From positions 346,121 to 410,120 of the forward strand of contig NZ_RXLQ01000001.1 of NCBI RefSeq assembly GCF_003953935.1: a stretch of DNA of 64,000 nt. The letters are read 5' to 3'. A program made the translations under genes and the position numbers. The stretch comes from Massilia atriviolacea. GTDB lineage: Bacteria > Pseudomonadota > Gammaproteobacteria > Burkholderiales > Burkholderiaceae_D. Positions 28,738 to 52,981 of the stretch are shown here, in pieces (positions within the stretch are counted from its first letter, which is position 1; the number at the start of each line of letters is the position of its first letter). A model generated the notes under the pieces. That model was not told the origin of the DNA. It saw only the letters and a program-made list of their open reading frames with translations, and ran no database searches.

Positions 28738-29917
28738 GATCGTCCTTTCCTTCCCACGGGTAGATCGTCACGCCCGCCACCACACGGTTCACCGTGCCCG
28801 ACACGCTCGGCGTATCGGAGCGGATCCCCAGCCGCAGCGATTGCAGCAGCGCGAACATCTGGGCGAACACCACGAAAGGCAGCGCCAGTTCGATGTCCGG
28901 CGCCGCGGCCGCCCCGTCGAGCAGCAGGTCGCCGGCCCCGATGCCGTCCGCCTGGGCGCTCAACGCCAGCACCCGGGCCGCGCGGCCATCCCTGCGCAGT
29001 TCGCCCAGCAGGTCCAGGTCGTAGCGCCGCGTGTAGGCGTCGTTCGACAGGAACAGCACCACCAGCGTGCTATCGTTGACGACGCTTTTCGGCCCGTGCC
29101 GGAAGCCCAGCGGCGAATCGAAGCTGGCCACCACCCGGCCGTCGGTCAGTTCCAGCAGCTTCAAGGCCGCTTCGCGCGCCAGCCCGCCCAGCTCATTGCT
29201 GCCCAGGTATACCACGCGCTCGAAACCCGCGTCGGCCAGCTCCCGCGCCAGCGGCAGCGCGTCCCGCAGCAGCGCCTGCGCGGCGCCGGCAAACCGGGCT
29301 TCGCCTTCCGGCGGCGCAACGATCGCCCCGAACATCGACGCCGCCGCCAGCAGCATCGACGAAAAGCTGGACGTCATCGCAAACGCGCGGTCGTGCGTTT
29401 CGTCCGGCAGCAGCAGCGCGAATGCCCTGGGATGCGACTGGCAGCGTGCATACAGCGCGCCGGCCACGTTGCAGGTCACGACCAGGTGATGGCAGTTCTT
29501 TACCAGGCGCTCGGCCAGATCGAAGGCCGCCACGCTTTCCGGGCTGCTGCCCGAGCGCGCAAACGACACCAGCAGGGTCGGCACGTCCGCGCGCAGGTAG
29601 CGGTCCGGTCCCGCCACCAGGTCGGTGGTGGGCACGGCTTCCACCGCGCGCGCCGGTCCGCGCGACAGCGCCGGCACCAGGCACGCGCCGATGAAGGCCG
29701 ACGTGCCGGCGCCGGTCAGCACAATGCGCAAATCCGGGTTGGCCAGCAGCGGCCGCAAAAAATCGTCGATGGCGCCGCGCCGCTGGCGCAGCAGGTCGAG
29801 GACCCTGGCCCAGACCTGCGGTTGCTGGTCGATTTCGCGCGCGGTCCAGCCGGCGCCGAGCGCTTCCAGCTCCGTCAGCGCGTATCCGAGTCGGCGCTCG
29901 TTCAGTGCATCGTTCAT
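28721..29917 (-). CDS. agaS: Double-SIS-domain galactosamine-6-phosphate deaminase/isomerase, AgaS family
   Basis: A 398-residue protein with two SIS sugar-phosphate domains. Phosphosugar-binding serines lie in LTGAGTSAFIGAC and VSFARSGSSPES (first domain); the second carries YLGSNELGGLAREAALKLLELTDG and SFDSPLGFRHGPKSVV, typical of AgaS. AgaS converts galactosamine-6-phosphate to tagatose-6-phosphate plus ammonia. The ATG at 29917 overlaps the upstream stop in ATGA; reading further upstream gives an out-of-family extension. It sits between agaZ and the kinase, as expected for a galactosamine pathway. Confidence 0.9.
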   Translation of the reverse strand: MNDALNERRLGYALTELEALGAGWTAREIDQQPQVWARVLDLLRQRRGAIDDFLRPLLANPDLRIVLTGAGTSAFIGACLVPALSRGPARAVEAVPTTDLVAGPDRYLRADVPTLLVSFARSGSSPESVAAFDLAERLVKNCHHLVVTCNVAGALYARCQSHPRAFALLLPDETHDRAFAMTSSFSSMLLAAASMFGAIVAPPEGEARFAGAAQALLRDALPLARELADAGFERVVYLGSNELGGLAREAALKLLELTDGRVVASFDSPLGFRHGPKSVVNDSTLVVLFLSNDAYTRRYDLDLLGELRRDGRAARVLALSAQADGIGAGDLLLDGAAAAPDIELALPFVVFAQMFALLQSLRLGIRSDTPSVSGTVNRVVAGVTIYPWEGKDDHVPGR

Positions 29918-31212
29918 TGTGCCAGCTCCAGGTGTCCCGCCGTCGGCGAGCATGCATATCGATATTGACGCAGCAGGGCGGACACGCCCGCCTGCAGCAG
30001 GTGTCCGGTGTTCGCCGCGATCCGGCCTGCGCGGATCGCCGCATACTGGTCCGGCAGGTATTGACTGACCAGCGTCAAGGGCGGCGGATCGCGATCCAGG
30101 TTGGCCAGCATCGCCTCGCATGCCTGCCGCACTTCGGGCGCCGGCCAATAGTAGCGAATCCGGTCGCTCAGCGAAAACTGCAGGTCGACCTGCTCGCGCG
30201 CCGGGTCGGCGTAATAGCCGCGCCAGTAGGCGGGCCGCGCGCGCATGGTGTCGAGCACCACGGACTTGAGGCCCGCGCTGCGGCGCGCGCCCAGCCATTC
30301 ATGCTCGATGTCCGCCAGCGCCCACAGGGTCTCGCGCAGCGCGAAGGTGGCCGCCGGTCCGACCTTGAGGATCGCAAAGTGGTCGCGCACCAGCGACTTC
30401 AGGTTGGCGGGCGTCTGGTAATCGGTCGAATGGGCCTCGTACACCATCAGCGCATCGCTTTCGATGTAGGCGCTGAGCGCTTGCGCCAGCGGCGCGCGAT
30501 AGTCGATCACCTTGTGATGGTCGAATTCCACCCCCGGCTGCACCACCAGGCCGACGATGCGCTCCCACGCCGCTTCCAGCCCGGCCGCCGCAAACGCCGC
30601 GCGGTGCGCAGCGATGGTGCCGGCCGCCGCCTCCGGGCTGGTCGCCTGCAGGTCGTGCAGGTCTTCCTGCGCACCGCCGGGCACCGGCACTTCGGTGCCG
30701 ATCACATACACCGGCGCCTCGCCGCCGCAGCGGCGCCAGGTGCGCTCGGCCACCGCGCACAGGCGCGCCGCGCGCGCCGCCACCACATGTTCGGGAAGCG
30801 GCGCCGGATCGTCCTTGCACGACATCGAACAATCGAGATGGATCTTGCGAAAGCCCGCCGCCACATACTGCTCGATCAGCACATCGGACTTGTTCATGGC
30901 CTCGTCCGACGGGGCGGACTGCCAGCAGTTCGGCCCCAGATGGTCGCCCCCGAGCAGCACCAGGTCGCGCGGGAAGCCGACGCGGTCGGCGATCGCCATC
31001 ACGAAGCGGTGGAAGTCGGCCGGCTTCATGCCGGTGTAGCCGCCGAACTGGTTGACCTGGTTCGACGTCGCCTCGATCAGCACCGGCGTGCCATGCGCCA
31101 GCCCTTCGCGCAGCGCCGCTTCCAGCACCACGGGATGGGCCGAGCAGACCGAGTAAATACCGACCGGCGCGCCGGCCTTGTGTTGGCGGATGATGTTCAG
31201 TAAAGCCTTCAT
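29914..31212 (-). CDS. agaZ: AgaZ/KbaZ/GatZ-family tagatose-phosphate pathway protein
   Basis: A 432-residue TIM-barrel protein of the GatZ/KbaZ family. Signatures include GIYSVCSAHPVVLEAAL, EATSNQVNQFGGYTGM, LGGDHLGPNCWQ and FRKIHLDCSMSC. In enterobacteria this family stabilises the class II tagatose-1,6-bisphosphate aldolase; in other proteobacteria AgaZ has been proposed to act as tagatose-6-phosphate kinase. No catalytic aldolase (KbaY/GatY) gene is in the window. It overlaps the permease stop and agaS start in ATGA quartets. Confidence 0.9.
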   Translation of the reverse strand: MKALLNIIRQHKAGAPVGIYSVCSAHPVVLEAALREGLAHGTPVLIEATSNQVNQFGGYTGMKPADFHRFVMAIADRVGFPRDLVLLGGDHLGPNCWQSAPSDEAMNKSDVLIEQYVAAGFRKIHLDCSMSCKDDPAPLPEHVVAARAARLCAVAERTWRRCGGEAPVYVIGTEVPVPGGAQEDLHDLQATSPEAAAGTIAAHRAAFAAAGLEAAWERIVGLVVQPGVEFDHHKVIDYRAPLAQALSAYIESDALMVYEAHSTDYQTPANLKSLVRDHFAILKVGPAATFALRETLWALADIEHEWLGARRSAGLKSVVLDTMRARPAYWRGYYADPAREQVDLQFSLSDRIRYYWPAPEVRQACEAMLANLDRDPPPLTLVSQYLPDQYAAIRAGRIAANTGHLLQAGVSALLRQYRYACSPTAGHLELAQ

Positions 31213-32117
31213 GGTTGCGTCCTGTTAGAAAAATCGGTATCGGGTTCGGCTTCGCCCTCGGGCAAGGCAAGCAGCAGCGCGGCCAGCAGCGCAAGCAGGA
31301 TCCCGGCCAGCTTGAACTGCCCCGGCATCACGCCCGCCACGGCCATGGCGACGATCGCGGTAAGCAAAGGGGCGCCCGCATTGACCATCGGCGAGACCAC
31401 GATCGCTTTGCCGAAGCGGAAGGCGTACACCAGCGTCAGCGCGCCGATGGCATTGAGAACCTGGATCGCCGCCGCCAGCCCCGGCCCGCTCATGCCATAG
31501 TTGACCGGCTGGCTGAAGTCCGTCAGCAGCAGCGCCACCGGAATGAACGCCAGGCCGCTGACGGTCATGTAAAAGAAGATGCTCTCCGCGTCCATGCTGG
31601 CGTTGGCAAGGCGGATGAAGTACGACTGCAAGCCCCATGCCAGCAGCACCGCCAGCGACAGTGCGAACCACAGGCCCATACTGGCCGGCTGGCCGGGCGC
31701 ATAGTCGAACAGCGGCAGCGCGCATGCCGCCAGCACGATGCCGGCCATCCCCAGCTTGCCGACCCGCTCCTTGAGCAAGAAGAAGGAGAGGGCGATGGTC
31801 ACCATCGGCGAGAGCGAGATGATGGGGAAGATCAGGTAGGTCGGTCCGATTTTCACCGCATGGAACAGGATCATCTGGCCGCCCGCGCCAAGCACGCCGA
31901 TCACCATCCCGAGCCACACCGAACGCGCATCGCGCTGCAGGCGCCAGCCCGCGCGCCGCATCACCACCCAGGCCGGCACGATCATCGTCAGCGCCCACAC
32001 GACATAATTGAGCGTCTCGGGAAAGCCATTCCCGCTGGGCGCTCCCGCAAACGCGCCCCATACGCCCCACAGCAGCGTCGTAATGCCGGCGTAGGTAAGC
32101 CAATTACTTGATTTCAT
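31209..32117 (-). CDS. DMT-superfamily (EamA-type) permease, probable amino-sugar importer
   Basis: A 302-residue protein with ten hydrophobic helices in two EamA repeats (start MKSSNWLTYAGITTLLWGVWG; second repeat around MDAESIFFYMTVSGLAFIPV). The helix with LSFFLLKERVGKLGMAGI is the family signature. As the only inner-membrane transporter in the operon it is the likely route for GalNAc or galactosamine into the cytoplasm, though EamA substrates are very diverse. Overlaps both neighbours by 4 bp. Confidence 0.83.
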   Translation of the reverse strand: MKSSNWLTYAGITTLLWGVWGAFAGAPSGNGFPETLNYVVWALTMIVPAWVVMRRAGWRLQRDARSVWLGMVIGVLGAGGQMILFHAVKIGPTYLIFPIISLSPMVTIALSFFLLKERVGKLGMAGIVLAACALPLFDYAPGQPASMGLWFALSLAVLLAWGLQSYFIRLANASMDAESIFFYMTVSGLAFIPVALLLTDFSQPVNYGMSGPGLAAAIQVLNAIGALTLVYAFRFGKAIVVSPMVNAGAPLLTAIVAMAVAGVMPGQFKLAGILLALLAALLLALPEGEAEPDTDFSNRTQP

Positions 32118-33361
32118 GGTGTTTTCCCTGGTCTGGCGATGGGCGCGATGCGCAGGATGCGCGCCTCGTGGCTGGTCACTTCGGTCGTGAAAGGAATCGT
32201 GAAACTGCCCAGGTCCTTGTGCTGCCACAGGTCGCGCACGGTGTACGCGTCCCAGGTCAGGGTCAGGTCGCGCCGGGGGCTGAAGCTCATGTCGGCCGTG
32301 GCGCTGCCGCGATTGAGCAGGGCGACCGCCCAGCTGCCGTCGGCCAGCTCCTTCGCATACACTTGCAGCTGGCCGTCGTCGCGCACCTTGCGCGCCGGTT
32401 TGCCCAGGCTGTCCTGGTTGAGCGCCGTGATCTCCTTGTTGGTCAGCGTCTCCAGCGAGTAGGGGTCGAGCTTGCGCAGGTCGGCCCCCGCCAGCAGGGG
32501 CGAGGCCAGCATCGCCCACATGCTGAAGTGGGTCCGGTATTCGACGTTCGACGCACCGGCGCCCGGTAGCTGCATGCTGTTGCCGTTCAGGCCCACGATC
32601 AGCATGTCGTAGTCGTTCCAGTGCCCCGGTCCCGAGTATTTTTCCAGTCCGATGCCGTGGTCGATCAGGTCCAGCACATCGAAAAAGTACTTCTCGCGCC
32701 TGGCCGGATAATCGAAATCGTCCGAAATATCCTGCCCGATGCGCCAGTGATGCGCTCCCAGATCAGCCGCCCATTCCCACGGCTTGCCCCAGCCGCAGTG
32801 GCATGCGTTGAGCACGATGTCGCGCTGTTGCGCCACCAGCGCGCGCGACATCGCCCCGAAAATGGTTTTCAGGACCGGCACCGGCGCATCCTTGTGCGAG
32901 CAGCAGCTGTCGTACTTGAGGTGGTCCACGCCCCACGACGCGAACAGCTTCGCATCCTGCGCCTCGTGGCCCTCGCTGCCGGTATAGCCGGCGCAGGTGC
33001 TCTGGCCGGGACCCGAATAGATCCCGAACTTGAGTCCTTTCGCATGGGCATAGTCGGCCAGGTACCTGATCCCGCGCGGGAACTTGACCGGATCGGCCTC
33101 CAGCGGATGGTCGCGCCGGTTTCCCTTGTAGCGCTGCCAGCCATCGTCCAGGTTCACATACCGGTAGCCGGCCTCGCGCATCCCGTTCGATGCCATGGCG
33201 TCGATGGTCTCGATAATCAACTGCTCGTTGATGTTGTCGGCAAATTGCAGCCAGCTCACCCAGCCCATGGGCGGCGTCTGCGCCAGCGGCGCGGCCCCCG
33301 CCAGGCTGGCCGCGCAACTGAGCGCCAGTGCCGGCAAGCGTTTCAATACATGCTTGAACAT
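32114..33361 (-). CDS. Secreted GH27 glycosidase, probable alpha-N-acetylgalactosaminidase (copy 1)
   Basis: A 415-residue exported GH27 enzyme (signal ending SLAGA). It has the same layout as the paralogue at 25407: TPPMGWVSW, NLDDGWQRYKGNRRD, HLKYDSCC nucleophile, RIGQDISDDF acid/base, and the Glu-less loop CHCGWGKPWEW. One change near the N-terminus (WLQF for WNNF) and differences in the C-terminal beta domain may shift linkage or aglycone preference. It is second in the operon, 11 bp after the TonB receptor stop, and overlaps the permease start in ATGA. Confidence 0.9.
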   Translation of the reverse strand: MFKHVLKRLPALALSCAASLAGAAPLAQTPPMGWVSWLQFADNINEQLIIETIDAMASNGMREAGYRYVNLDDGWQRYKGNRRDHPLEADPVKFPRGIRYLADYAHAKGLKFGIYSGPGQSTCAGYTGSEGHEAQDAKLFASWGVDHLKYDSCCSHKDAPVPVLKTIFGAMSRALVAQQRDIVLNACHCGWGKPWEWAADLGAHHWRIGQDISDDFDYPARREKYFFDVLDLIDHGIGLEKYSGPGHWNDYDMLIVGLNGNSMQLPGAGASNVEYRTHFSMWAMLASPLLAGADLRKLDPYSLETLTNKEITALNQDSLGKPARKVRDDGQLQVYAKELADGSWAVALLNRGSATADMSFSPRRDLTLTWDAYTVRDLWQHKDLGSFTIPFTTEVTSHEARILRIAPIARPGKTP

Positions 33362-33372
33362 GAGTGCCCCGC

Positions 33373-36141
33373 TCAGAATTTGGCGGTGGCGCCGATGGTG
33401 ACCGTGCGGCCCCAGGTTTCGAATCCGGCCAGCGCGTCGCTGCGGCGGTTCAGGTTCGCCTTGTAGACCGCGTCGCCCAGGTTTTTCCCTTCGATGAACA
33501 CATTCAGGCTCTTGTTGATGCTGTACGAAAGCGAGGCCGAAATCCAGGTGATCGGGTCGGCGATCTTGGCCATGCCGCCGTAGGACTCGCGTACTTCCAC
33601 CGTGCGCCCGGTGTAGTCGAGTGCGATCTGCGCATTGATCCTGTCGTCCTCGTACAGCAGCGCTGCCGCCGACGAGGTGCGCGCCACGCCTTCCAGCGGT
33701 CCCACATCGACCCCGCCCACCTGCGACCTGGTCCTGGTGTAGCTGTATTTATAGTTCACGCCGAAGCCGTTCGAGAACAGGTGCTGCACGCCCAGTTCCA
33801 GCCCGCGCACCCTGGCGCCATCGCCATTGATCGGGTGGATCACGGTGTAGAGCTGTCCCGGTACGCCGATGTCCACATTCTCGTCGCGCGCATAGGTGAC
33901 GAAGTTCTTGATGTTCTTCCAGTAGAGCGCCCCGGTCAGCATCGACTTGGGGTTGTAATACCACTCCAGCGACAGGTCGCCCTGGCGCGCTTCGACCGGT
34001 TTCAGGTGGGCGTCGCCCTGGACGCTGACTTCCCAGATGCGGTTGACCGAGCCGTCGGTGGTCAGGGGCGCCAGCTGGTCGAGCGAAGGACGCGCCATGG
34101 TCCTGGCCAGCGCAAAGCGCGCCAGCAGGTTTTTCTGCGCCCAGTAACCGAGGTTCAGGGACGGCAGCAGCTTGCTGTATTTGCCGTCGACGATGTCGGG
34201 CGTCGGCAGGCTGTAGGTAATGGTCGGGCTGGAGGTCGGGTCGTTCGGGGTCAGGTCGTCGACCTTGAGCACGCGCCGCACCGCGCTTTCCGATGCGGTT
34301 CTGGTGCGCACCCAGCGCAGCCCGACGCTGCCGAACCAGTCGTCGCCGGCCAGTTCCGCCGAGACGTACGAGGCCAGCGTCTTTTCTGTCACGTCGTACG
34401 ACGCCGTGGGGTTGAACGCGGGCGTCATCAGCGCGGCGTTGTAGAAGGTGCCGGTCGGCTGGCCCAGGGCGTCGACGATCTCCTTGCCATCGAGCGCCTT
34501 CATCGCATTGAAGTAGGCCGGCAGGTCGAAGGTGCCCAGGGTGCCCGGAAAACTCCCGCCGCCATGGCGCATGAAGTCGCGCGGCGTGATCGAGCCGATC
34601 ACGTTCGCACCCAGCGACGCGAAGGTATGCTGGTAATTGCAGTACTGGCAGGCGTAATCGAGATTGTCGAAGGTGCTGCGCGTCTTGGCGCGCCTGGTGT
34701 TGCTGGCGCCGAAGCGCAGGCTGTTCAACACGCCTTTGTCGAGTTGCAGCCTGCCCGCCAGCGAAGCGCCATCGACGGTGTCCTTGATCCTGGTGCCATC
34801 GAGCTGCGCCCAGTGCAGCGCGTAGTCCTTGTCGCCCAGGGTCGGCGCGGCCGCCGCCAGGTCGCGCCCGTCGGCGAGCGTGACGCGCATGTGGGGCAGG
34901 CCGTCCCTGATGCTGTAGTAACCGGTATGGTCGCCCGGGATCCCGGCCACCGCCCAGCTGTTCTTGCCGCCCGAATCGCGCTTGGCAGTCGAACGGTACA
35001 CGTCGCCCGTCAGTTTCAGTGCTTCGTTGACCTTCCATTCGCCGTTCCATCCGATCTGGCCGCTGTTGACGACGCGGTTGTCGGTGCGATTGATGATTTC
35101 CGGCGTCAGGTGCTTGACCGTCATGCCGGTGACCAGGTTGTCCTTGATGGCCACATCGCTGTAGCGGCCTTCCGCGTGGTCCACGAAATACGACTGGTTG
35201 TAGCCGGTGGAAGGCGCGTCCAGCTTCGTGGCCAGCACGTCGAATGCCATGCGAATGTTCGTGCTCGGCTTCCATTCGATGGCGCCCGACAGCGCGCCGC
35301 GCTTCTTTTCCTGGTCCAGCGTGCCGACCGAAAAGCAGCAGGGCGCCAGCAGGTCGCGGCCATCGGGCGAATCGATCTGCTTGCCGTTCTTGTCCAGGCT
35401 TGCGTGCAAGGTGGTGTAGGCGAATTCGTTGAGCGTGTCCGAGCGCGTCTTGCTCTTGCCGAGCACGAGGCCGAGCTGTACGCCGAGGCGATTGTCGTCG
35501 TAGGTATTCTTCACCACGCCCGAGATTTTGCCGCCATGGTTGCGCGACAGGTCGTTGTAGTCGCTCTCCACGCGCCAGTTGGACCGAAAGCCGGGCGTGT
35601 CGAGCGGGCGTGCCGAGCGCAGGTTGATCGCCCCGCCGATGCTGCCTTCGATCTGGGTGGCGTCCGCCGACTTCATCACGTCCGCACCGGAGATGGTCTC
35701 CGACGGCAGCACGTCGAAAGCGAATTCGCGGCCGTCGCCATCGGTGGCCAGGGTACGGTTGTTCAGGGTGACGATGCTGTAGGCCGGCCCCAGGCCGCGC
35801 ACATTGACGTACTGGCCTTCGCCGCCATGGGTGCGCGACACGGTGATGCCGCTGATATGCGACAGCGAATCGGCCACGTTATCGTCCGGGAAGCGGCCCA
35901 GGTCTTCGGCGGTGATGGTATCCATGACGATGGCGGCGTCGCGCTTGCGTTCGCGCGATTTGGCCAGGCTGGCGCGGGTTCCGCTGACGGTCACCGTGGC
36001 CGCGGCCGGAACCGCGGGATCGGCCAGGGGCGCCGCCACCGGCGCCGCCGCTTCCTGCGCGCTGGCGCTGCCATACAGCGCCAGTTCGATCGCCACGACC
36101 ATGAGCGTGCGCGTAAACCTGTTTCCATTTCTGATAATCAT
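33373..36141 (-). CDS. TonB-dependent outer-membrane receptor
   Basis: A 922-residue outer-membrane transporter. The signal peptide ends GSASA. The plug domain (about 50-220) contains DTITAEDLGRFPDDNVADSLSHISGITVSR, EGQYVNVRGLGPAYSIVTLNN and SADATQIEGSIGG. The rest is a beta-barrel ending in an aromatic residue (TIGATAKF). It resembles the glycan-importing TonB receptors of Xanthomonas/Caulobacter rather than siderophore receptors. First gene of the operon, so it probably imports the GalNAc-containing glycan or oligosaccharide that the GH27 enzymes trim. Confidence 0.92.
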   Translation of the reverse strand: MIIRNGNRFTRTLMVVAIELALYGSASAQEAAAPVAAPLADPAVPAAATVTVSGTRASLAKSRERKRDAAIVMDTITAEDLGRFPDDNVADSLSHISGITVSRTHGGEGQYVNVRGLGPAYSIVTLNNRTLATDGDGREFAFDVLPSETISGADVMKSADATQIEGSIGGAINLRSARPLDTPGFRSNWRVESDYNDLSRNHGGKISGVVKNTYDDNRLGVQLGLVLGKSKTRSDTLNEFAYTTLHASLDKNGKQIDSPDGRDLLAPCCFSVGTLDQEKKRGALSGAIEWKPSTNIRMAFDVLATKLDAPSTGYNQSYFVDHAEGRYSDVAIKDNLVTGMTVKHLTPEIINRTDNRVVNSGQIGWNGEWKVNEALKLTGDVYRSTAKRDSGGKNSWAVAGIPGDHTGYYSIRDGLPHMRVTLADGRDLAAAAPTLGDKDYALHWAQLDGTRIKDTVDGASLAGRLQLDKGVLNSLRFGASNTRRAKTRSTFDNLDYACQYCNYQHTFASLGANVIGSITPRDFMRHGGGSFPGTLGTFDLPAYFNAMKALDGKEIVDALGQPTGTFYNAALMTPAFNPTASYDVTEKTLASYVSAELAGDDWFGSVGLRWVRTRTASESAVRRVLKVDDLTPNDPTSSPTITYSLPTPDIVDGKYSKLLPSLNLGYWAQKNLLARFALARTMARPSLDQLAPLTTDGSVNRIWEVSVQGDAHLKPVEARQGDLSLEWYYNPKSMLTGALYWKNIKNFVTYARDENVDIGVPGQLYTVIHPINGDGARVRGLELGVQHLFSNGFGVNYKYSYTRTRSQVGGVDVGPLEGVARTSSAAALLYEDDRINAQIALDYTGRTVEVRESYGGMAKIADPITWISASLSYSINKSLNVFIEGKNLGDAVYKANLNRRSDALAGFETWGRTVTIGATAKF

Positions 36142-36177
36142 CGGCCTGACCTTTTGCGGTGGAGAGAAGATGAAGTC

Positions 36178-36227
36178 ATACTAAAGTAATCAATTCGAAA
36201 GAACAAGAAACTTTCGAAAACTTTCGC
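36178..36227 (-). promoter_or_regulatory. Promoter and repeated TTTCGAAAG operator candidates for the aga-type operon
   Basis: On the minus strand TTGTTC (36201-36206) and TAGTAT (36178-36183) form a promoter with 17-bp spacing. Around it lie repeated elements: TTCGAAAG from 36194, TTTCGAAA (36212-36219) and CTTTCG (36221-36226), all in an AT-rich island. From memory, the E. coli AgaR consensus is also built from repeated TTTC-type elements, so these are likely sites for the DeoR regulator encoded next to them. The remainder of the 235-bp gap up to 36376 holds nothing I recognise. Confidence 0.55.
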
Positions 36228-36376
36228 AATGTCGTTTTCGTCCAACGCGAAAGCAAAAGCAAGACGGTTTCATGCGAGATGGGTAGCGGCGGGCGTGACC
36301 TGCGCACAGCCGGCAGCGGCGCGGGTCGGACAAGCGGGGAGGGAAAAGCGGGTAAAAAACTGCGCAGGGTGTGGCG

Positions 36377-37195
36377 CTAGGCCAGCACGACCTCGACGCC
36401 TTTTTCGATCAGGGTATCGACCACTTGCTGGTCGGCGCCACGGTCGGTGATGAGCATGTGGATATCGTCGACGCGCGCGATCACCGACAAGGTGCGGCGC
36501 AGCAGCTTGGACGAATCGGCCACCGCCACCACATGGCGCGCCACCTTCATCATTTTCGCATTGAGCTGCGCTTCGAGCAGGTAGGGCGTCATCAGGCCGA
36601 TCTCTGGGTCGAGGCAGTCGACGCCGAGGAACAGGCGGTCCGCCTGCAGGTGCTCCAGCGCGGCTTCGGCCTGTGGCCCGGACAGCGAATACGAGCGCGA
36701 ACGCAGCTGCCCGCCCAGCATGATCAGGTTCACATGCTGCACATTGGCCAACAGGACCGCGATATTGAGCGCGTTGGTGATCACGTTGATGGACGTGAGC
36801 TTCATGCCGCGAATGAGCTTGGCGATTTCGGCCGTGGTGGTGCCCGAATCGAGGATGATGGTATCGCCGTCGGCGATCAGGCGCGCGGCGGCGGCGGCGA
36901 TGCGCTTCTTCTCGGCGTGATGCTGGTTTTCCTTGACGCTGATGGGCAGGTCGTCGCCATCGCGCTGCACCAGCGCGCCGCCGTGGGTGCGTACCAGCGC
37001 GCCGACGTCTTCCAGCGCTTTCAGGTCGCTGCGGATGGTCACGACCGAAATGCCGAAGCGGGCCGACAGTTCTTCGACCGTGACCTGTTCCTGCGCTTCG
37101 ACCAGTTCCACGATCTGGCGCCGTCGTTCGGCCAGGAGGCGGCCCTTGTCGGGGCCCGGGTTTCGTTCCGGCGCTGCGCCGTTCGGATTTTCCAT
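36377..37195 (-). CDS. agaR: DeoR-family regulator, AgaR-like
   Basis: A 272-residue repressor-type regulator. The N-terminal winged helix has RRRQIVELVEAQEQVTVEELS and FGISVVTIRSDLKALEDVG, the DeoR signature. The C-terminal sugar-phosphate sensor domain contains LDSGTTTAEIAKLI and the conserved VADSSKLLRR. The start at 37195 gives MENPNGAAP; an upstream extension lacks family resemblance. It lies upstream of the TonB-headed catabolic operon on the same strand and most likely senses a galactosamine-pathway phosphosugar. The symbol is by context. Confidence 0.88.
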   Translation of the reverse strand: MENPNGAAPERNPGPDKGRLLAERRRQIVELVEAQEQVTVEELSARFGISVVTIRSDLKALEDVGALVRTHGGALVQRDGDDLPISVKENQHHAEKKRIAAAAARLIADGDTIILDSGTTTAEIAKLIRGMKLTSINVITNALNIAVLLANVQHVNLIMLGGQLRSRSYSLSGPQAEAALEHLQADRLFLGVDCLDPEIGLMTPYLLEAQLNAKMMKVARHVVAVADSSKLLRRTLSVIARVDDIHMLITDRGADQQVVDTLIEKGVEVVLA

Positions 37196-37338: not shown

Positions 37339-38799
37339 TTATAACGCTCCGCGCGGCGTTGGCAACGGTTTCAGGCTTCTCACCGTGGCGTACGTCGGCC
37401 CATGCGAGCCGAACAACACCGGGACGCCGGCCAGCGCCTCCAGCTGCGCCACGAATGCCGCCGCATCGGGCACTGGCTCGTTCGCGTAGTGTGGCGTGAC
37501 CCGCGCGAGCAGTCGGCCCAGCCGCTCCTGATGCGCCAGGTCGTGCGCCGCACCAGGCAGGATGGCGTCGATCCGTCCCGACACCGGATCGCGCGTGCAC
37601 AAGCCGTCATCCGCACCATTCGAACCGCTCCCACAATCCGCACCATTCGAACCACTCCCACAATCCGCACCATTCGCACCATTCGCATCGTCCGCCTCGT
37701 ACCCGGTGCACCAGTGCAGGCCCGGCGCGCGGTCGAATACATCCAGATGACTCACCAGCAGGCCGTCGAGCGGCCCCGCCACCTGAAGCGCATAGCGCAG
37801 CAGTAGCGCATCGGGATGCCCGCGCCGGAAGCGCCCTTGCCAGCCGTCCGACGCATTGTGCGGCTCGGGCAGCCGATCGAGGCGCGCATCGTGCGTCGGC
37901 AGCGGCCCGTTGCCATGCCGGGTCATGTACGAACGCAGGATGCCAAGGTGTTCGATGCGCGCATGCTGGCCCGCGTCGGCCGCCACCGCCTGCACCGACG
38001 CCGGATGGATGCTGCTCCACGTCGTATGCGGATGAAAACCGCGCCATTCGTCCAGCAGCACGCCCTGCGCGCCTTCGAACAGCACGCAGCCGGGCAGGTG
38101 CAGCCGCTCGGACACCTGTGCGCGCGGGGCCGGCGGCACCTGCTGGGTCAGCTGCGCCACCTGGTCGAGCCAGCGCGCGGCGATGCCCGGGTCGTCCAGC
38201 ACCGCCAGTTCCGCCGCATAGGCACGCTGGTTGGCCGGTTCCTCGCAATGCTCGCTGAAACCGGCGCGCAGTGTGCGCCGCATCAGCTCCAGTTTGGCCA
38301 GCGCCACCGCCGGCTGCACCAGATCGGCGTAATGCACGATCTGTGCGGGATAATCGATGCCGTGGCCCACCGTTTCGCCCACGCCGACGCCGCAGCTGCC
38401 GTGCGCCTGCGCACCGCGCCGCAGTTCGCGCATGCGGCCCGCAGCCTGGTGATACGGTGTGGTGACGCGGCAGCGGCCGTCGATGACGATCCTCCGCAGG
38501 GCGTCATCTACGCCGGCGCGGCGCAAGTAAGCGTCTTCCACCAGCAGCGCGGTCGGATGCACGACCACCGGAGAGGCGAGCAAGGTGACCGTACCCGGCA
38601 CAAAGCTGCCCGCGCCGAACTGCGCGAAGGTATGATGCCGTCCGTCCGGCAGCACCACATTGTGGCCCGCCTGGGCGCCGCCATTGAAGCGCACCACCGT
38701 GTGCGCGCCCCATTGCCGGCACAGGAAATCGGTGAACAGGCCCTTGCCGCAATCGCCGAAGCCAAGCCCCAGCAGGGACACCAGACGTGTCGAAGACAT
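37339..38799 (-). CDS. Adenylosuccinate-synthetase-like (PurA superfamily) enzyme
   Basis: A 486-residue PurA paralogue, last gene of the five-gene NrtR operon (8 bp after the VWA stop, AAGGAT ribosome-binding site). PurA's GDEGKGK loop reads GFGDCGKGLF, keeping the catalytic Asp and the Lys. The catalytic-His loop reads NGGAQAGHN, keeping the His. LFEGAQGVLLDEWRGF matches FEGAQGTLLD. The SSN end of PurA's next loop and the Arg-containing GRGIGPAYE segment are altered (GSCGVGVGETVGHG). The GTP- and IMP-type sites may therefore accept a different nucleotide or acceptor. A low-complexity insert of NGADCGSGS repeats lies near the C-terminus. It is probably not the housekeeping purA. Confidence 0.85.
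   Translation of the reverse strand: MSSTRLVSLLGLGFGDCGKGLFTDFLCRQWGAHTVVRFNGGAQAGHNVVLPDGRHHTFAQFGAGSFVPGTVTLLASPVVVHPTALLVEDAYLRRAGVDDALRRIVIDGRCRVTTPYHQAAGRMRELRRGAQAHGSCGVGVGETVGHGIDYPAQIVHYADLVQPAVALAKLELMRRTLRAGFSEHCEEPANQRAYAAELAVLDDPGIAARWLDQVAQLTQQVPPAPRAQVSERLHLPGCVLFEGAQGVLLDEWRGFHPHTTWSSIHPASVQAVAADAGQHARIEHLGILRSYMTRHGNGPLPTHDARLDRLPEPHNASDGWQGRFRRGHPDALLLRYALQVAGPLDGLLVSHLDVFDRAPGLHWCTGYEADDANGANGADCGSGSNGADCGSGSNGADDGLCTRDPVSGRIDAILPGAAHDLAHQERLGRLLARVTPHYANEPVPDAAAFVAQLEALAGVPVLFGSHGPTYATVRSLKPLPTPRGAL
37611..37690. repeat. In-frame 27-bp tandem repeat within the PurA-like gene
   Basis: Two nearly identical 27-bp units (37611-37637 and 37638-37664, one mismatch) and a partial, degenerate third encode repeated NGADCGSGS peptides. 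Because the unit is a multiple of three, copy-number change would keep the frame. Confidence 0.85.
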
Positions 38800-38807
38800 G
38801 GCTATCC

Positions 38808-39785
38808 TTATGCGAACATGCGTTTCCACCACGCCGACGGCGTCGCCGGCGTACCCGCCGCCGGCACATGCACGCGTGCGGCGGCATCCGGATCGAGCAG
38901 GTCGGCGTACGGGCGCAGGGCGCGCACGATGGCCGAGACGCGCTGCGGCGCAATGCCGTTGGCGCCCAGCGTGGTCACCAGCGCATCCATGTCCGGAATG
39001 GCGCGCTCGGTCAGGCCGACGATGGCGGCGGCCACCGCGCAGGCGTCGCCCGGCTCCTCCATGCAGATCACATGGTCGCCCAGCAGGTCGCGCCAGCGTT
39101 TTTCGCAGCGGGCGCGCCGGCCCAGGTCGGGAATCAGGAAGAACACATGGTACGTTTCGGCCGCCGCCGCAATCGCCTCGGCGATCGGCACGTCCGCATC
39201 GAGCTTGTCGCCCACCAGGCTGCCGATCTGGTGGCGCGAGACCGCCGGGTAGGGCAGCTCGTCGCCGGTGATGAACAGATAGCCCTTTTTGCGGCGCTTG
39301 ACCCAGCAGTCGATGTCGGTGTGCTGCGCCACCATATAGAAGGCCAGCTCGTAGCTCTCTTCGCCGCTGCCGCCACCGCCGCCTTCGAGGTAGCTCCAGG
39401 TCAGCCACTGGTCCATCAGTTCGGCGGTCGACTCGAACTGGCCGACCTGCAGCGGGGCGCGGTCGGACGTGGCGTCGCCGATGGCCATGAACAGCAGTTG
39501 CGGATCGGCGACGCCGACCGCGCCGAGCAGCGCCATGAAAGTCGGCAGCTCTTTGGTGGCCAGGCTTTGCGGAATGTCGCCCATCGAGCCGGTGACGTCG
39601 AGCGCGAACACGATGCCCAGCGAGTTGGGATGGTCCTCGCTGTCGCGCGATTCGCGGATTTTCAGGCCTTTGGGGTTCATCAGCGGGTGGCATCCGCGCT
39701 GGGTGAACACCTCGGTGCGGGATGCCGACGCGCGGTCGGCGACCAGTGCTGCGTGCGCAGCGTGGGAATAGTTACCTTGACCCAT
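38808..39785 (-). CDS. VWA (von Willebrand A) domain protein, TerY-like
   Basis: A 325-residue cytoplasmic protein. The metal-ion-dependent adhesion site is ALDVTGSMGDIP (DxTxS form), followed by TDIDCWVKRRKKGYLFITGDELPY, which resembles the conserved ITDGxP turn. The C-terminal ~80 residues are helical and ALEA-like. No signal peptide. VWA proteins of this kind (TerY in tellurite clusters) act with kinases as adaptor or switch proteins, and here the neighbour is a kinase-like protein 17 bp upstream. The start at 39785 has AAGGA with 7-nt spacing. Confidence 0.88.
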   Translation of the reverse strand: MGQGNYSHAAHAALVADRASASRTEVFTQRGCHPLMNPKGLKIRESRDSEDHPNSLGIVFALDVTGSMGDIPQSLATKELPTFMALLGAVGVADPQLLFMAIGDATSDRAPLQVGQFESTAELMDQWLTWSYLEGGGGGSGEESYELAFYMVAQHTDIDCWVKRRKKGYLFITGDELPYPAVSRHQIGSLVGDKLDADVPIAEAIAAAAETYHVFFLIPDLGRRARCEKRWRDLLGDHVICMEEPGDACAVAAAIVGLTERAIPDMDALVTTLGANGIAPQRVSAIVRALRPYADLLDPDAAARVHVPAAGTPATPSAWWKRMFA

Positions 39786-39802
39786 GATAGTTCCTTTATT
39801 GG

Positions 39803-40750
39803 TTACGGAGTGGGACTGAAATCGATAAATCTGGCCGGGCCGAACGCGTCTTTCGCCGCGCCGCCGACCGCCTGGCGCATGCCTTCCGCGCCGAGTGACG
39901 CGCACCATGCGGCGTCCATGCTGGCCCGCTCCAGCAACCGCGCCAGCGGGGCCGGAATGGCGTTTGACAAGGCCGGCTCGCCCGGGGAGTCGGACAGCAT
40001 CGCGCGCATGGCCCAGGCCAGCTGCACCAGGTCGCGCGCCTGGGCGCCGCGATCGTGCCTGCGGGTTGCGCCGGACCAGCCGATAATCAGCACGCCATGG
40101 TCGGCCGGGTGCACCAGCAGGTGCTCGGGCGCCAGCCGGCCATGGCTCCAGCCGCCGGCGTGTACGTACGCCAGCACTTCGAGCACGCGGCGCCACATCC
40201 ACACTGCATGGCGCGGGTCGATGGCGCGCCCATAGGACAGCCGCACGTCGGCCAGGCTGCCCCAGAATCCGGTGGGGTGGCGCAGCACCAGCACCTCGCG
40301 CCGCTGGCCATCCGCGCCGGCGCCCGCGCCCACGGCGACCGCCTGCGGCAGGCGCTGGGTATAGTAAGCGGCGCCCGGCCCGTCGTCGGCCTGCAACTGG
40401 TCGAGGATGGCTTTTTCGCGTGCCAGATGGCCGGCGGGCGCACCGGGGTGGGCGAGCTTGAGCACCACGCGTCCCGGCATGGCGCCGCTCCGGTCGGCCA
40501 GCGACACGGTTGCGCAGCCGCCGGCGCCCAGGTGGGCGATGGTTTTGTAGCGCTGGCCGCCGCAGGCAATGTCCGCCTCCGCGTCGCCTGCGCGCGAGCG
40601 CAGGTAGGCGGCACGAAAATCGGCGGCGCGCACCAGGTCTTCGCTGTGCGTCACGTCCGCCCCGCAGTAGGTGCAGCTGACGATGCGCCACAGCGCCTGC
40701 CGGGGCAGCGGGCTGCCGCATTGGGGGCAAAGGAGGGTGAGCGGCGTCAT
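39803..40750 (-). CDS. Zinc-ribbon pseudokinase
   Basis: A 315-residue protein with an N-terminal zinc ribbon (CPQCG at about 9-13, CTYCG at about 26-30) and a protein-kinase-like domain. The Gly-rich loop LGAGGCATVSLA, the VAIK-type Lys (VVLKLAHP) and the alpha-C Glu (REKAIL) are present. The catalytic loop HRDLKPEN reads HGRLAPEHLL, and the DFG position reads IIGW. The proton-acceptor Asp, catalytic Lys, Asn and metal-binding Asp are all missing, so it should bind nucleotide or partner without phosphotransfer. It ends 17 bp before the VWA start and begins 7 bp after the SPFH stop. Confidence 0.82.
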   Translation of the reverse strand: MTPLTLLCPQCGSPLPRQALWRIVSCTYCGADVTHSEDLVRAADFRAAYLRSRAGDAEADIACGGQRYKTIAHLGAGGCATVSLADRSGAMPGRVVLKLAHPGAPAGHLAREKAILDQLQADDGPGAAYYTQRLPQAVAVGAGAGADGQRREVLVLRHPTGFWGSLADVRLSYGRAIDPRHAVWMWRRVLEVLAYVHAGGWSHGRLAPEHLLVHPADHGVLIIGWSGATRRHDRGAQARDLVQLAWAMRAMLSDSPGEPALSNAIPAPLARLLERASMDAAWCASLGAEGMRQAVGGAAKDAFGPARFIDFSPTP

Positions 40751-40757
40751 GTCGGAA

Positions 40758-41735
40758 TCAAGCCAGGATGCGTTTTTTCTCGGCGTCGAATTCGGCGTCG
40801 GTCAGGATGTTCCGTTCGCGCAGCGCGGCCAGCTCGCGCAGCAGGGCGATGCGCTCGCCGTGGGCGGCCGGCGCGATGGCCTGGGCCATCTGGCCCACGC
40901 TGGCCCCCAGCGCACCGCCCATGGCCAGGCCCATGCCGGCGCCGAGCACCGTTGCGGCGCTGCCCTGGTTGGCGGCAGCTGTCTGCAGCACGTCGAAACG
41001 GCGCTCCTGCTGGTAGTCGAAGCCGACGATATTCATTTCAGCGCGCCGCGCCAGCGCCGCCTTGAGTGTCTGGACGGCCGGATCGGCCTCCGGTACGTTG
41101 ACCGATTCGATACTGAAGTGTGTCAGCGCCACACCGTACTGCGCGGTTTCATCGGCCAGCGAATCCTTCAAGGCGCCTGACAGCGCATCGAGCCGGGTCG
41201 AGATCTCCAGCACCGATACGCCGCTCCCACCGATCGCAGCGGCGATCGCAGTCTTGATGCGGGTCGTGTTCACGGCGCGGAAATAGTCGGCCAGCGTGGC
41301 CGCATCCATGCCGCGCGCGGTGCCGACCAGCGACATCAGGAACAGCTTCGGATCGTCGATCCGGATGCCGTACTGGCCGAAGGCGCGCACCGGCACCATG
41401 ATCCCGAACTTCGGGTCCTGCAGCTGGATCGGATCGGGCGTCCCCCAGCGCACATCGAGCGTGGTGGCCAGGTTGACGAACCAGACTTCGGCCGAAAACG
41501 GCGACTGGCCGCCGAAGGGCAAGCCCACCAGCTTGCGCAGCAAAGGCATGTTGCTGGTCGAAAGCGTGTGGCGGCCGGCCCCGAACGGGCCTTCGTACAC
41601 GCCGTCGCGCACCATAAAGGCGAGCTGCGACTCGTTGACAATCAGCTGCGTGCCCGTGGACAGCTCCTGCGAAGGGTACTTCCATGCGAGCTGGCTCGGG
41701 CTGCCGTCCCACTTTACCCTGTCGATAATGGCCAT
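40758..41735 (-). CDS. SPFH-domain protein with C-terminal SHOCT motif (YdjI-like)
   Basis: A 325-residue protein lacking any transmembrane segment. The SPFH/band-7-like domain occupies about residues 20-235 (QLIVNESQLAFMVRDGVYEG at the start, RRAEMNIVGFDYQQ at the end). A Gly/Ala-rich linker (GAGMGLAMGGALGASVG) leads to a SHOCT-type helix pair, ALLRELAALRERNILTDAEF. This architecture is annotated elsewhere as virion core protein-like or YdjI. SPFH proteins oligomerise at membranes and scaffold partners. It is the first structural gene after the NrtR-like regulator (25-bp gap). Confidence 0.85.
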   Translation of the reverse strand: MAIIDRVKWDGSPSQLAWKYPSQELSTGTQLIVNESQLAFMVRDGVYEGPFGAGRHTLSTSNMPLLRKLVGLPFGGQSPFSAEVWFVNLATTLDVRWGTPDPIQLQDPKFGIMVPVRAFGQYGIRIDDPKLFLMSLVGTARGMDAATLADYFRAVNTTRIKTAIAAAIGGSGVSVLEISTRLDALSGALKDSLADETAQYGVALTHFSIESVNVPEADPAVQTLKAALARRAEMNIVGFDYQQERRFDVLQTAAANQGSAATVLGAGMGLAMGGALGASVGQMAQAIAPAAHGERIALLRELAALRERNILTDAEFDAEKKRILA

Positions 41736-41760
41736 GATCGTGTTCTCCTTGGTTGAATGC

Positions 41761-42462
41761 TCACAGGCCGCGCTTGAGCAGCCCTAAGCGGTCGCGAAAT
41801 TCCGGCCGCAAGCGGTACAACTGCGCCGGGCGGCTCGGGCTCGACGCATCCATCTGTCCTTCGGCCGCCTCCAGCACATCGAGTTCGGCCATCTTGCGGC
41901 GAAAGCTGACCTTGTTCAGCGGCTCGCCCATCAGTGCCTCGTACACGCGCTGCAGCTGCGGGAGCGTGAACAGCTCCCCGACCAGGAAGCACGGCAGCGA
42001 CGAATACTGGGTCTTGCCGCGCAGGCGCTGCACGGCCGCCGCCACGATGGCCGCGTGGTCGAACGGCAGCGTGTGCAGGCGATCGACGCCGACCAGCTTC
42101 ACGCCGGGATGGCCGGCCGCCGCGATGACCGCGTGCGGCACCAGCGCGTAATAGGCCAGCGACACCGACCAGCCGCGCGGATCGCGCGCCGCGCCGGTAA
42201 ACGCGGCCAGCTGTTCGAGGTAGGGCACGTCGATGCCGGTCTTGGTCTTGAGGACGCGCAGGGCGGCGCCGTAGCCGTCCAGGTCCTTGTCGGTGTGGAT
42301 GTAGCCGCCGGGGAGGGCGGCCACGCCCTTGTACGGTTCGCGTTCGCGCTTGAGCAGGGCGACCGACAGGCCGTCGTCGCCCAGGGTCAGCAGGACCGTG
42401 TCGACCGTGCAGATGACGTCATTCACGCGGGGCTCCTGTGGAAGGTTGGATTGAGTTGACAT
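41761..42462 (-). CDS. NrtR-type Nudix-related transcriptional regulator
   Basis: A 233-residue regulator with an N-terminal Nudix fold and C-terminal winged helix. The Nudix box is degenerate: the REUxEExGU portion reads RVLKTKTGI, so all three metal-binding Glu are replaced and hydrolysis is unlikely. That is common in NrtR regulators, which sense ADP-ribose or related nucleotides. The C-terminal half (VGELFTLPQLQRVYEALMGEPLNKVSFRRKM region) is the DNA-binding domain. Two inverted repeats lie upstream. The ATG at 42462 is 6 bp from the -10 box, implying a leaderless mRNA; an upstream ATG at 42498 is the alternative. Confidence 0.87.
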   Translation of the reverse strand: MSTQSNLPQEPRVNDVICTVDTVLLTLGDDGLSVALLKREREPYKGVAALPGGYIHTDKDLDGYGAALRVLKTKTGIDVPYLEQLAAFTGAARDPRGWSVSLAYYALVPHAVIAAAGHPGVKLVGVDRLHTLPFDHAAIVAAAVQRLRGKTQYSSLPCFLVGELFTLPQLQRVYEALMGEPLNKVSFRRKMAELDVLEAAEGQMDASSPSRPAQLYRLRPEFRDRLGLLKRGL

Positions 42463-42468
42463 GCTTGC

Positions 42469-42498
42469 ATTGTACTTAGTTTCAAAATGAAACAGCAA
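42469..42498 (-). promoter_or_regulatory. Promoter of the NrtR-SPFH-VWA-PurA operon with overlapping operator
   Basis: On the minus strand TTGCTG (42493-42498) and TACAAT (42469-42474) are 18 bp apart. An inverted repeat, GTTTCA and TGAAAC around AAA (42479-42493), fills the spacer, an ideal place for a repressor. A transcription start 6-7 bases after the -10 would fall on the ATG at 42462. Confidence 0.65.
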
Positions 42499-42542
42499 GC
42501 GAAATTCGATTGAAGGGCTAAATTCGTCATGATTCGACGATT

Positions 42543-42559
42543 AGATTCAAACTGAATCT
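42543..42559. promoter_or_regulatory. Second operator-like inverted repeat upstream of the NrtR-type gene
   Basis: AGATTCA and TGAATCT flank AAC in a perfect 7-3-7 inverted repeat, sharing the TTCA-3-TGAA core with the box at 42479-42493. Centres are 65 bp apart. Between the regulator and msrC (42463-42768) I see only these boxes and a possible msrC -10 (TACAAT, 42706-42711). Confidence 0.6.
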
Positions 42560-51888: not shown

Positions 51889-51898
51889 GGAGTCCATC

Positions 51899-52630: not shown

Positions 52631-52639
52631 GGGGGCGCG

Positions 52640-52981
52640 ATGGTACGCAGTTCCCCACGCTGGACAGGATCGGACGCCGCCTTGCGCTCGCTCCAGGTCG
52701 CTTTCGACGTCGAAAAACAGGTGATCGATGCGGTGCGCTACGCCGCCTTCCGAAACCAGTGCTCGCCCTCGGACCAGATCCGCCACATCCTCGGCTTGCC
52801 GTGCACCACCAAGCCGGTGCGGCCGCGCCTGACCGTCTCGCTCAGCGATGCCGACTACGCCCTCCTGGGAGAGCGCTTCGGCCTGGCGGCGGACGACAGG
52901 CGCAAGATCAAGGAAGCCCTGCACGAAGCCCTGATCGCGTTCGCCATGCGGCAAAAAGCGCCCGATACCGACACCGCATAA
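52640..52981 (+). CDS. Hypothetical protein between PspA and YqiJ (113 aa)
   Basis: Not confidently assigned. The N-terminal half (VEKQVIDAVRYAAFRNQCSPSDQIRHIL) reads like a ribbon-helix-helix or short helical domain; the second half (LTVSLSDADYALLGERFGLA) is similar in flavour. A GGGGG-rich ribosome-binding site lies 8 bp before the ATG. Spacing of 9 and 37 bp to neighbours places it within the operon. It could be a small regulator or adaptor, perhaps of the operator pair upstream; that is only a guess. Confidence 0.75.
   Translation: MVRSSPRWTGSDAALRSLQVAFDVEKQVIDAVRYAAFRNQCSPSDQIRHILGLPCTTKPVRPRLTVSLSDADYALLGERFGLAADDRRKIKEALHEALIAFAMRQKAPDTDTA

What the first reader, a model, noticed from the sequence alone, without database searches (positions are those of the whole stretch)
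37339..42559. Candidate undescribed five-gene system: NrtR-type sensor, SPFH-SHOCT, zinc-ribbon pseudokinase, VWA and PurA-like enzyme
Five genes are packed with gaps of 25, 7, 17 and 8 bp behind one promoter with an operator in its core. The parts are a nucleotide-sensing regulator, a membrane-type scaffold, a kinase-fold adaptor, a metal-dependent VWA switch and a nucleotide-ligating enzyme. Together they suggest a nucleotide-signal stress response. VWA plus kinase pairs are known from tellurite (TerY) clusters, and literature on Ter systems predicted nucleoside-like metabolites. This exact combination, with a degenerate Nudix regulator and a PurA paralogue, is not one I can name.
Basis: partly seen in the sequence, partly recalled or inferred. 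Interest (0 to 1): 0.85.

Follow-up and report, generated by a model that had tools for sequence, protein, structure and literature searches.

The report
NAD-linked PurA-like/VWA gene module
A five-gene bacterial operon carries the core of a conserved but apparently undescribed gene module, found in several bacterial phyla and in phages and repeatedly placed beside NAD metabolism genes, in which a changed copy of a purine-making enzyme travels with a metal-binding VWA protein and, in bacteria, a broken kinase.

Summary
In detail: five minus-strand genes with gaps of exactly 25, 7, 17 and 8 bp. But the five are not the unit. Pseudokinase-VWA-PurA-like is the bacterial core; VWA and PurA-like are adjacent in 78 of 82 scored cellular loci (six phyla) and within one gene in 72 of 78 viral-contig loci. 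SPFH is a close-relative extra. Context points to NAD+/ADP-ribose: the regulator is NrtR-like; NrtR relatives lie within 7 kb of the VWA in 9 of 22 genomes tested; nadE-nadM directly precede the module in four Rhodocyclaceae/Accumulibacter loci; in viral contigs with a NAPRTase-family gene it lies within 7 kb of the VWA in 6 of 10 (simulated p 0.00085). Most loci, however, show no NAD neighbour. The PurA-like protein is neither housekeeping PurA (20 of 21 genomes also hold that) nor PurZ; it keeps PurA's catalytic Asp and His but differs in the phosphate and aspartate sites. I infer an NrtR-controlled complex acting on an NAD/ADP-ribose-family purine nucleotide; substrate and function are untested. 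The Ter link is not supported.

The parts
42469..42498 (-). Predicted core promoter: -35 TTGCTG (42498-42493), 18-bp spacer, -10 TACAAT (42474-42469)
   Evidence: Sequence; most of the spacer plus -10 kept in five relatives; generic scan found no promoter
42475..42492 (-). Proximal operator TTTCATTTTGAAACTAAG, filling the promoter spacer
   Evidence: Only 0-mismatch site in the genome; shares the AACTAA half with the NrtR box at the genome's NAD operon
42540..42557 (-). Distal operator ATTCAGTTTGAATCTAAT
   Evidence: Only 1-mismatch site in the genome
41761..42462 (-). NrtR-like regulator: degenerate Nudix domain plus NrtR winged helix (likely start GTG 42426)
   Evidence: NrtR_WHD 1.8e-19; PDB 3gz5 2.3e-36 (that this entry is an NrtR is recalled); 59% identical to the NrtR of the genome's own NAD operon
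40758..41735 (-). SPFH (Band_7_1) protein with SHOCT tail; lineage-specific extra
   Evidence: in the window and 5 of 82 other cellular loci
39803..40750 (-). Zinc-ribbon pseudokinase
   Evidence: weak kinase matches; in 52 aligned rows the HRD Asp is kept in 17 and the DFG Asp is Gly in 48
38808..39785 (-). VWA protein with DxTxS...D MIDAS-like motif
   Evidence: AlphaFold model and PDB fold match; motif residues conserved at 96-100%
37339..38799 (-). PurA-like enzyme of the adenylosuccinate synthetase fold
   Evidence: Adenylsucc_synt 2.6e-56; model matches E. coli PurA, E 1.2e-29; separate clade from canonical PurA

Best explanation
The operon is an NrtR-repressed, NAD+/ADP-ribose-linked enzyme module. 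Shown: a conserved gene module in bacteria and phages; repeated adjacency, in a minority of loci, to NrtR-type regulators and NAD-synthesis genes; a PurA-fold enzyme that keeps the catalytic Asp and His of PurA but differs at positions of the IMP-phosphate and aspartate sites; a VWA protein with a conserved MIDAS-like motif; an upstream pseudokinase with a zinc ribbon (most bacteria) or a J-domain motif (some phages, Rhodococcus, Allorhizobium). Inferred: when ADP-ribose rises because NAD+ is being consumed, the Nudix domain binds it, the repressor leaves the operator inside the promoter, and the triad is made. The PurA-like enzyme uses GTP to phosphorylate the 6-oxo group of a purine nucleotide other than IMP, most likely of the NAD/ADP-ribose family, and replaces it with an amine, while VWA and pseudokinase assemble or gate it; SPFH ties the complex to the membrane in this lineage. 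The purpose would be to restore or remodel the NAD/purine pool under NAD-consuming stress, in bacteria and in phages. My own sub-estimates: conserved module 0.97; NAD/ADPR-linked 0.85; substrate is not IMP 0.7; this whole mechanism 0.4.
For: Module: VWA next to PurA-like in 78 of 82 and kinase next to VWA in 81 of 82 scored cellular loci; in viral contigs the pair is adjacent in 59 of 78 and within one gene in 72 of 78; loci were found with the VWA alone. One phage of each named kind checked. NAD link in bacteria: NadE-NadM-kinase-VWA-PurA in L027, L039, L046, L048, and NadE, NadM, PncB divergent from NrtR-kinase-VWA-PurA in L016 (PncB by Pfam in L027 and L016); NrtR beside a minimal VWA-PurA pair in L019, L205-L207 and beside the triad in L182. 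A NrtR_WHD gene lies within 7 kb of the VWA in 9 of 22 genomes and is the only one found in 3 of these. The genome's own NAD operon has a paralogous NrtR and the same box as L016. Phages: NAPRTase family in 10 of 50 records, gap to VWA up to 7 kb in 6 of 10 (p 0.00085; other cut-offs: 3 kb 3 of 10, p 0.043; 5 kb 5 of 10, p 0.002; 10 kb 7 of 10, p 0.00025); Prs-NadV-VWA-PurA-Macro in L173, NadV after PurA in L177, NADAR in L171, isochorismatase and NAD synthase in L163. Enzyme: in 114 sequences catalytic D 98%, H 99%, Q224 100%, guanine-site D 98%; N38 position Q 97%, V273 H 100%, aspartate-loop T is Q 99% (E. coli numbers and roles recalled).
Against: No substrate, product, binding or expression evidence. 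Most loci show no NAD gene nearby by my profiles: NrtR in 10 of 82 and other NAD genes in 7 of 82 cellular loci, NAD genes in 10 of 78 viral loci. NrtR lies elsewhere in 6 and was not found in 7 of 22 genomes. In the phage test the cut-offs were looked at after the data, no control gene was run, and general clustering of phage metabolic genes could produce it; 4 of the 10 gaps are unremarkable. A scan for NrtR boxes ahead of the kinase or VWA in 91 loci gave the locus's best site with a clear score only in L019 and L183, second best in L078. The regulator's ligand is assumed from its family.
Confidence: 0.4

Rival explanations
1. Signal-type defence system: the PurA-like enzyme makes a nucleotide messenger, VWA and pseudokinase sense infection, and SPFH or another partner acts on the membrane.
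For: Patchy distribution (9 of 145 family genomes; 6 of 398 phylum genomes; both include the window genome); presence on plasmids (20 of 72,556 records); lineage-specific SPFH partner; Nudix-regulated vWA-containing systems proposed as conflict systems in PMC9503650 (section read).
Against: No PADLOC match at E 0.1 for four of the five proteins and only weak kinase matches for the fifth; no effector was recognised among the recurring neighbours listed, though none was sought by profile; phages carry the same pair, in some cases beside NAD synthesis genes, which fits a metabolic helper better.
Confidence: 0.2
2. Repair of deaminated purines: the enzyme converts inosine-type nucleotides or nicotinamide hypoxanthine dinucleotide back toward adenine forms.
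For: Catalytic Asp and His and the base-contacting Gln of a 6-oxopurine enzyme are kept while phosphate- and aspartate-site positions are changed (roles recalled); present in phages beside NAD salvage genes.
Against: The aspartate loop is changed, so an adenylosuccinate-like product is not assured. A PurB-like lyase or a deaminase partner was not searched for.
Confidence: 0.15
3. A chaperone-like assembly system in which VWA and the J-domain or zinc-ribbon protein handle a client and the PurA-like protein is a GTP-binding structural part.
For: HPD motif of J-domains in 11 of 12 phage, Rhodococcus and Allorhizobium upstream proteins; Pfam DnaJ at E 0.003 or better in 5 of 8 tested and in L179, but over the cut-off only in L130 (2.1e-25); vWA proteins are called peptide-binding chaperones in PMC9503650.
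Against: PurA catalytic residues are kept in 98-99% of sequences, which a structural part would not need.
Confidence: 0.15
4. An ordinary second adenylosuccinate synthetase in a NAD or purine operon.
For: Same fold and family.
Against: Far under NCBIfam cut-offs for adenylosuccinate synthase (155 against 402 bits); separate clade; 20 of 21 genomes also hold a canonical PurA; partner genes conserved with it.
Confidence: 0.07

Closest known systems
Adenylosuccinate synthetase PurA (PF00709)
   Same: Fold, P-loop GDxGKG, catalytic Asp and His, guanine-site Asp
   Different: Changed positions in the IMP-phosphate and aspartate sites, paired with VWA, separate clade, canonical PurA also present in 20 of 21 genomes
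PurZ / DgsS (phage 2-aminoadenine synthesis)
   Same: PurA-fold phage enzyme with altered specificity
   Different: phiVC8 PurZ groups outside the clade (very long branch); 30.7 bits against a cut-off of 300; Foldseek E about 1e-15 against 1e-29 for E. coli PurA
NrtR-regulated NAD salvage operon (PncB-NadE-NadM type)
   Same: Same regulator family; gene neighbours in L016 and in four Rhodocyclaceae/Accumulibacter loci
   Different: The window copy has its own paralogous NrtR and an operator found only here in the genome
ARG-centred Nudix/WYL-TF systems with vWA chaperone (PMC9503650, section 3.8)
   Same: Nudix-type repressor plus vWA protein plus nucleotide-related enzyme; ADP-ribose theme
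   Different: Built on an ADP-ribosylglycohydrolase; the paper's main text holds no 'PurA' or 'adenylosuccinate' (supplements not searched)
TerY-P triad of Ter systems (recalled; paper not held)
   Same: VWA plus zinc-ribbon kinase-like protein
   Different: Nearest TerD 14 kb away; zinc ribbon N-terminal; pseudokinase; PurA-like partner

Membership tests
PurA (adenylosuccinate synthase equivalog) | Score over NCBIfam equivalog cut-off | tested here: not met
   155.3 against 402 and 125.1 against 395.55 bits
PurA (adenylosuccinate synthase equivalog) | IMP-phosphate and aspartate-loop residues conserved | tested here: not met
   N38 position is Q 97%, aspartate-loop T is Q 99%; catalytic D and H kept (roles recalled)
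PurA (adenylosuccinate synthase equivalog) | Makes adenylosuccinate from IMP, Asp, GTP | not testable with these tools
   Needs an enzyme assay
PurZ | NCBIfam PurZ cut-off and phylogenetic grouping | tested here: not met
   30.7 against 300 bits; one phiVC8 PurZ falls on the canonical side, SH-aLRT 99, very long branch
NrtR | Nudix plus NrtR winged helix | tested here: met
   NrtR_WHD 70.1 bits, cut-off 27; Nudix 19.3, just under its 21.1
NrtR | NCBIfam equivalog NF050029 | tested here: not met
   160.4 against 400 bits
NrtR | ADP-ribose binding and derepression | not testable with these tools
   Needs binding assay
Ter system / TerY-P | TerD neighbour | tested here: not met
   Six TerD matches in the genome, nearest at window 22859-23434, 14 kb away
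Ter system / TerY-P | TerC, PP2C partners | not tested
   No profile search made
ARG-centred systems | ADP-ribosylglycohydrolase gene | tested here: inconclusive
   None of the five window proteins matches one; neighbours of relatives not searched with an ARG profile
PADLOC defence systems | Model match | tested here: not met
   Only weak kinase matches (best PglW 8.1e-7, 25 bits; PD-T4-6 3.8e-5), none for the other four at E 0.1

The most novel reading that the evidence does not exclude
The PurA-like/VWA pair is a new kind of enzyme complex that makes a modified NAD or ADP-ribose nucleotide, for instance a 6-substituted purine form that resists NAD-depleting enzymes or replaces lost NAD+, used by bacteria under ADP-ribose control and by phages as part of countering NAD-depletion defences.
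Probability: 0.15. Interest if true: 0.95.

Novelty: categorically new. Interest (0 to 1): 0.72.

Why it matters
It ties phage proteins annotated only as adenylosuccinate synthetase and their unnamed VWA neighbour (about 200 phage records, duplicates included) to NAD/ADP-ribose metabolism and to a bacterial NrtR-type regulator. NAD+ is a main battleground between phages and bacteria; a conserved PurA-derived enzyme there would be new chemistry, and the pair is small enough to assay directly.

Tried and rejected
Ter membership (TerD not near). SPFH as core (5 of 82 loci besides the window). Canonical PurA and PurZ membership. A genome-wide regulon of the window operator: no second locus within one mismatch. 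NrtR boxes upstream of kinase or VWA genes in 91 loci: little. Pfam on the phage 117-aa upstream gene: nothing over cut-off in the two tested. Full-text searches for a prior description: searches gave no paper, one unrelated by its listing; searches matched 87, 103 and 44 papers, of which I saw only the 20, 15 and 10 listed, and none of those listed reads as a description of this set; two papers wanted by DOI are not held. Papers: passages of PMC9503650, PMC7824862, PMC9476963 and PMC7159879 and the whole of section 3.8 of PMC9503650; all others as search listings only.

Rows dropped and limits: cellular counts leave out four duplicates (L025, L026, L028, L071), and L073 went unscored because my gene caller gave no VWA there (it has all three genes). 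Gene order rests on that home-made caller; L125, for instance, is counted there without PurA although one search shows one. Four cellular loci miss adjacency: L077, L084 and L096 had no PurA-like gene in the stretch, and L076 has one gene between. L099 and L100 were counted apart as near-host contigs. The linkage test is conditional on the 10 records with a match. Profiles for NadM, NadE, NadV and Prs were built from one seed each in the fetched loci; only some members were checked with Pfam.


Full report
OBSERVATION. The window's nearest named relatives by VWA identity (96%) are Massilia frigida, M. mucilaginosa and M. aquatica. It holds five minus-strand genes at 42462-37339 with gaps of 25, 7, 17 and 8 bp. 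Pfam confirms NrtR_WHD, Band_7_1 and Adenylsucc_synt, with SHOCT and Nudix just under their cut-offs; the kinase match is weak and the VWA gene has no family match. AlphaFold models are confident (VWA pLDDT 89.7, PurA-like 91.9). Foldseek matches them to integrin-I/vWA domains at modest scores (best E 1.8e-6) and strongly to PurA (1cg3, E 1.2e-29; PurZ/DgsS about 1e-15).

PROMOTER. TTGCTG, an 18-bp operator as spacer, and TACAAT lie just upstream. Operator plus -10 is kept in five relatives (L012, L013, L020-L022). In the genome only this site and a second one 65 bp upstream match within one mismatch; 16 others have three mismatches, against 10 for the reversed control. The generic consensus scan did not call the promoter. 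The regulator may therefore serve only this operon.

WHAT IS CONSERVED. I used the VWA, the gene without a known family, as bait. Family scan: 9 of 145 genomes, the window genome among them; phylum scan: 6 of 398, again with the window genome. They lie in Pseudomonadota, Verrucomicrobiota, Myxococcota, Chloroflexota, Acidobacteriota and Fibrobacterota, some only as MAGs. A viral-contig scan gave 322 relatives, 80 kept. In 82 scored cellular loci, VWA is adjacent to PurA-like in 78 and to the kinase in 81; in 78 viral loci the pair is adjacent in 59 and within one gene in 72. SPFH occurs in 5 of the 82. Among phage records, 206-207 of 50,697 match the VWA: 188 named Mycobacterium, 10 Rhizobium, 6 Vibrio and a few others, duplicate entries included. 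I looked at one of each: kinase-VWA-(one gene)-PurA-like in Mycobacterium phage LRRHood, VWA-adenylosuccinate synthase in Vibrio phage Va1, VWA-PurA in Rhizobium phage RHph_Y65. Twenty of 72,556 plasmid records match; of the three opened, a Rhodococcus and an Allorhizobium plasmid have the triad and a NUDIX gene, while on a Rhodovulum plasmid my caller marked only the VWA and a Nudix gene.

NAD CONTEXT IN BACTERIA. In L027, L039, L046 and L048 NadE and NadM lie directly ahead of kinase-VWA-PurA. In L027 PncB ahead of them is confirmed by Pfam; a PncA-like gene is only weakly supported there and in L046. In L016, of the window's family, PncB (Pfam), NadE and NadM diverge from NrtR-kinase-VWA-PurA. 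In L019 and L205-L207 a NrtR-type gene sits beside a minimal VWA-PurA pair; in L182 a NrtR_WHD gene sits beside the triad, and in L181 a Nudix gene scoring just under its cut-off. A NrtR_WHD search in 22 genomes found matches in 15. Comparing positions, one lies within 7 kb of the VWA in G000, G018, G062, G125, G138, G237, G337, G446 and G592, and in G018, G062 and G592 it is the only copy found; it lies elsewhere in six genomes and was not found in seven. The window genome's own NAD operon on contig C9 (relatives of L016's PncA-like, PncB, NadE and NadM) has a divergent NrtR 59% identical to the window's and the box TTAATTTACTTTTGCAACTAA, the same as in L016. So one NrtR stands between both operons in L016, while the window lineage has paralogues (three NrtR_WHD genes in all) and a changed operator.

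NAD CONTEXT IN PHAGES. Of 50 viral records searched, 10 hold a NAPRTase-family gene. Its gap to the VWA is at most 7 kb in 6 of 10; random placement reaches that in 0.00085 of simulations. Other cut-offs: 3 of 10 at 3 kb (0.043), 5 at 5 kb (0.002), 7 at 10 kb (0.00025). The cut-offs were examined after seeing the data, and no control gene was run. Single cases: L173 reads Prs-NadV-VWA-PurA-Macro (Macro by Pfam, the first two by my profiles); L177 has NadV right after PurA and a NadM upstream; L175 has NadM and NadV around the pair; L163 has PurA, isochorismatase, NAD synthase and NadV on one side of the VWA and a Prs-like gene (just under the Pfam cut-off) on the other; L171 has NadV-VWA-PurA with NADAR downstream.

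THE ENZYME. In 114 dereplicated PurA-like sequences aligned to one canonical PurA, the catalytic Asp (98%), catalytic His (99%), Q224 (100%) and the guanine-site Asp (98%) are kept; N38 is Gln (97%), V273 is His (100%), an aspartate-loop Thr is Gln (99%), and no conserved residue stands at the R143 position (E. coli numbers and roles are recalled). PurA-like and canonical PurA fall on two sides of a branch with SH-aLRT 100. One phiVC8 PurZ falls with the canonical side, on a very long branch. The PurA-like clade splits into a kinase-linked group (with the Mycobacterium phage and Rhodococcus) and a group holding 12 of the 13 phage rows, L182 and the minimal NrtR-VWA-PurA loci. Of 21 genomes, 20 have two PurA-family genes, one of them canonical; one Chloroflexi MAG shows only the PurA-like one.

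THE PARTNERS. In 52 rows the kinase-like protein keeps the glycine loop (50), Lys (48) and helix Glu (49), but the DFG Asp is Gly in 48 and the HRD Asp is Asp in only 17 (one row is an unrelated true kinase). Twelve phage, Rhodococcus and Allorhizobium versions carry a J-domain HPD motif (11) or HTD (1) in place of the zinc ribbon; Pfam DnaJ is over its cut-off only in L130 and weak in five others. In viral loci 43 of 78 have instead a 117-aa gene, never together with the kinase. The VWA keeps DxTxS and a later Asp.

READING. The firm results are the module and its spread; the NAD neighbourhood is repeated and specific but present in a minority of loci. The mechanism (ADP-ribose derepression, GTP-dependent activation of a 6-oxopurine nucleotide other than IMP, VWA and pseudokinase as assembly or gating parts) is inference from family knowledge and residue patterns. 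The weak points are the many loci without NAD neighbours, the lack of a control gene in the phage test, and the absence of any biochemistry.

NOVELTY. Ten full-text searches gave no description of the set in what was listed; subscription papers and bioRxiv are mostly outside that library. Single genes are annotated in phage records and in PMC9476963 ('PurA-like adenylosuccinate synthetase', passage seen). I rate the module, not the folds, as new; a paper outside the library could lower that.

Noticed in passing
L101-L178, upstream of VWA: A 117-aa phage gene without Pfam identity occurs with the VWA in 43 of 78 viral loci and never together with the J-domain kinase gene: a possible functional substitute.
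   Followed up: partly
L241 (Rhizobium phage RHph_Y65) 237-6996: Calcineurin-like phosphatase, HAD hydrolase, PRTase_3, a Nudix gene and a HIRAN gene lie upstream of VWA-PurA.
   Followed up: partly
L080, L082, L084, L085, L087, L092, L093: Several Myxococcota-type loci carry two VWA genes around or ahead of the PurA-like gene.
   Followed up: no
L018 9719 and 11511: Two NrtR-like boxes, one before the regulator and one between kinase and VWA.
   Followed up: no
L182 10330-16726: On the Allorhizobium plasmid the triad is followed by an AAA ATPase, DUF5682 and DUF4132 genes.
   Followed up: no
window 37618-37677: The PurA-like gene has a repeated Gly/Ser/Asn/Ala-rich insert (residues 375-394, pLDDT under 50) coded by short direct repeats (by eye).
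   Followed up: no
window 22859-23434: A TerD-family gene, 14 kb from the operon.
   Followed up: no
window 51472-61608: A plus-strand cluster that looks like PspA, a flotillin-type SPFH protein, a zinc-ribbon protein and a 1749-aa protein (names from reading the sequences, not tested).
   Followed up: no
window 25407-37195: A minus-strand run that looks like sugar catabolism with a TonB-type receptor and a DeoR-type regulator ending next to the operon (read, not tested).
   Followed up: no
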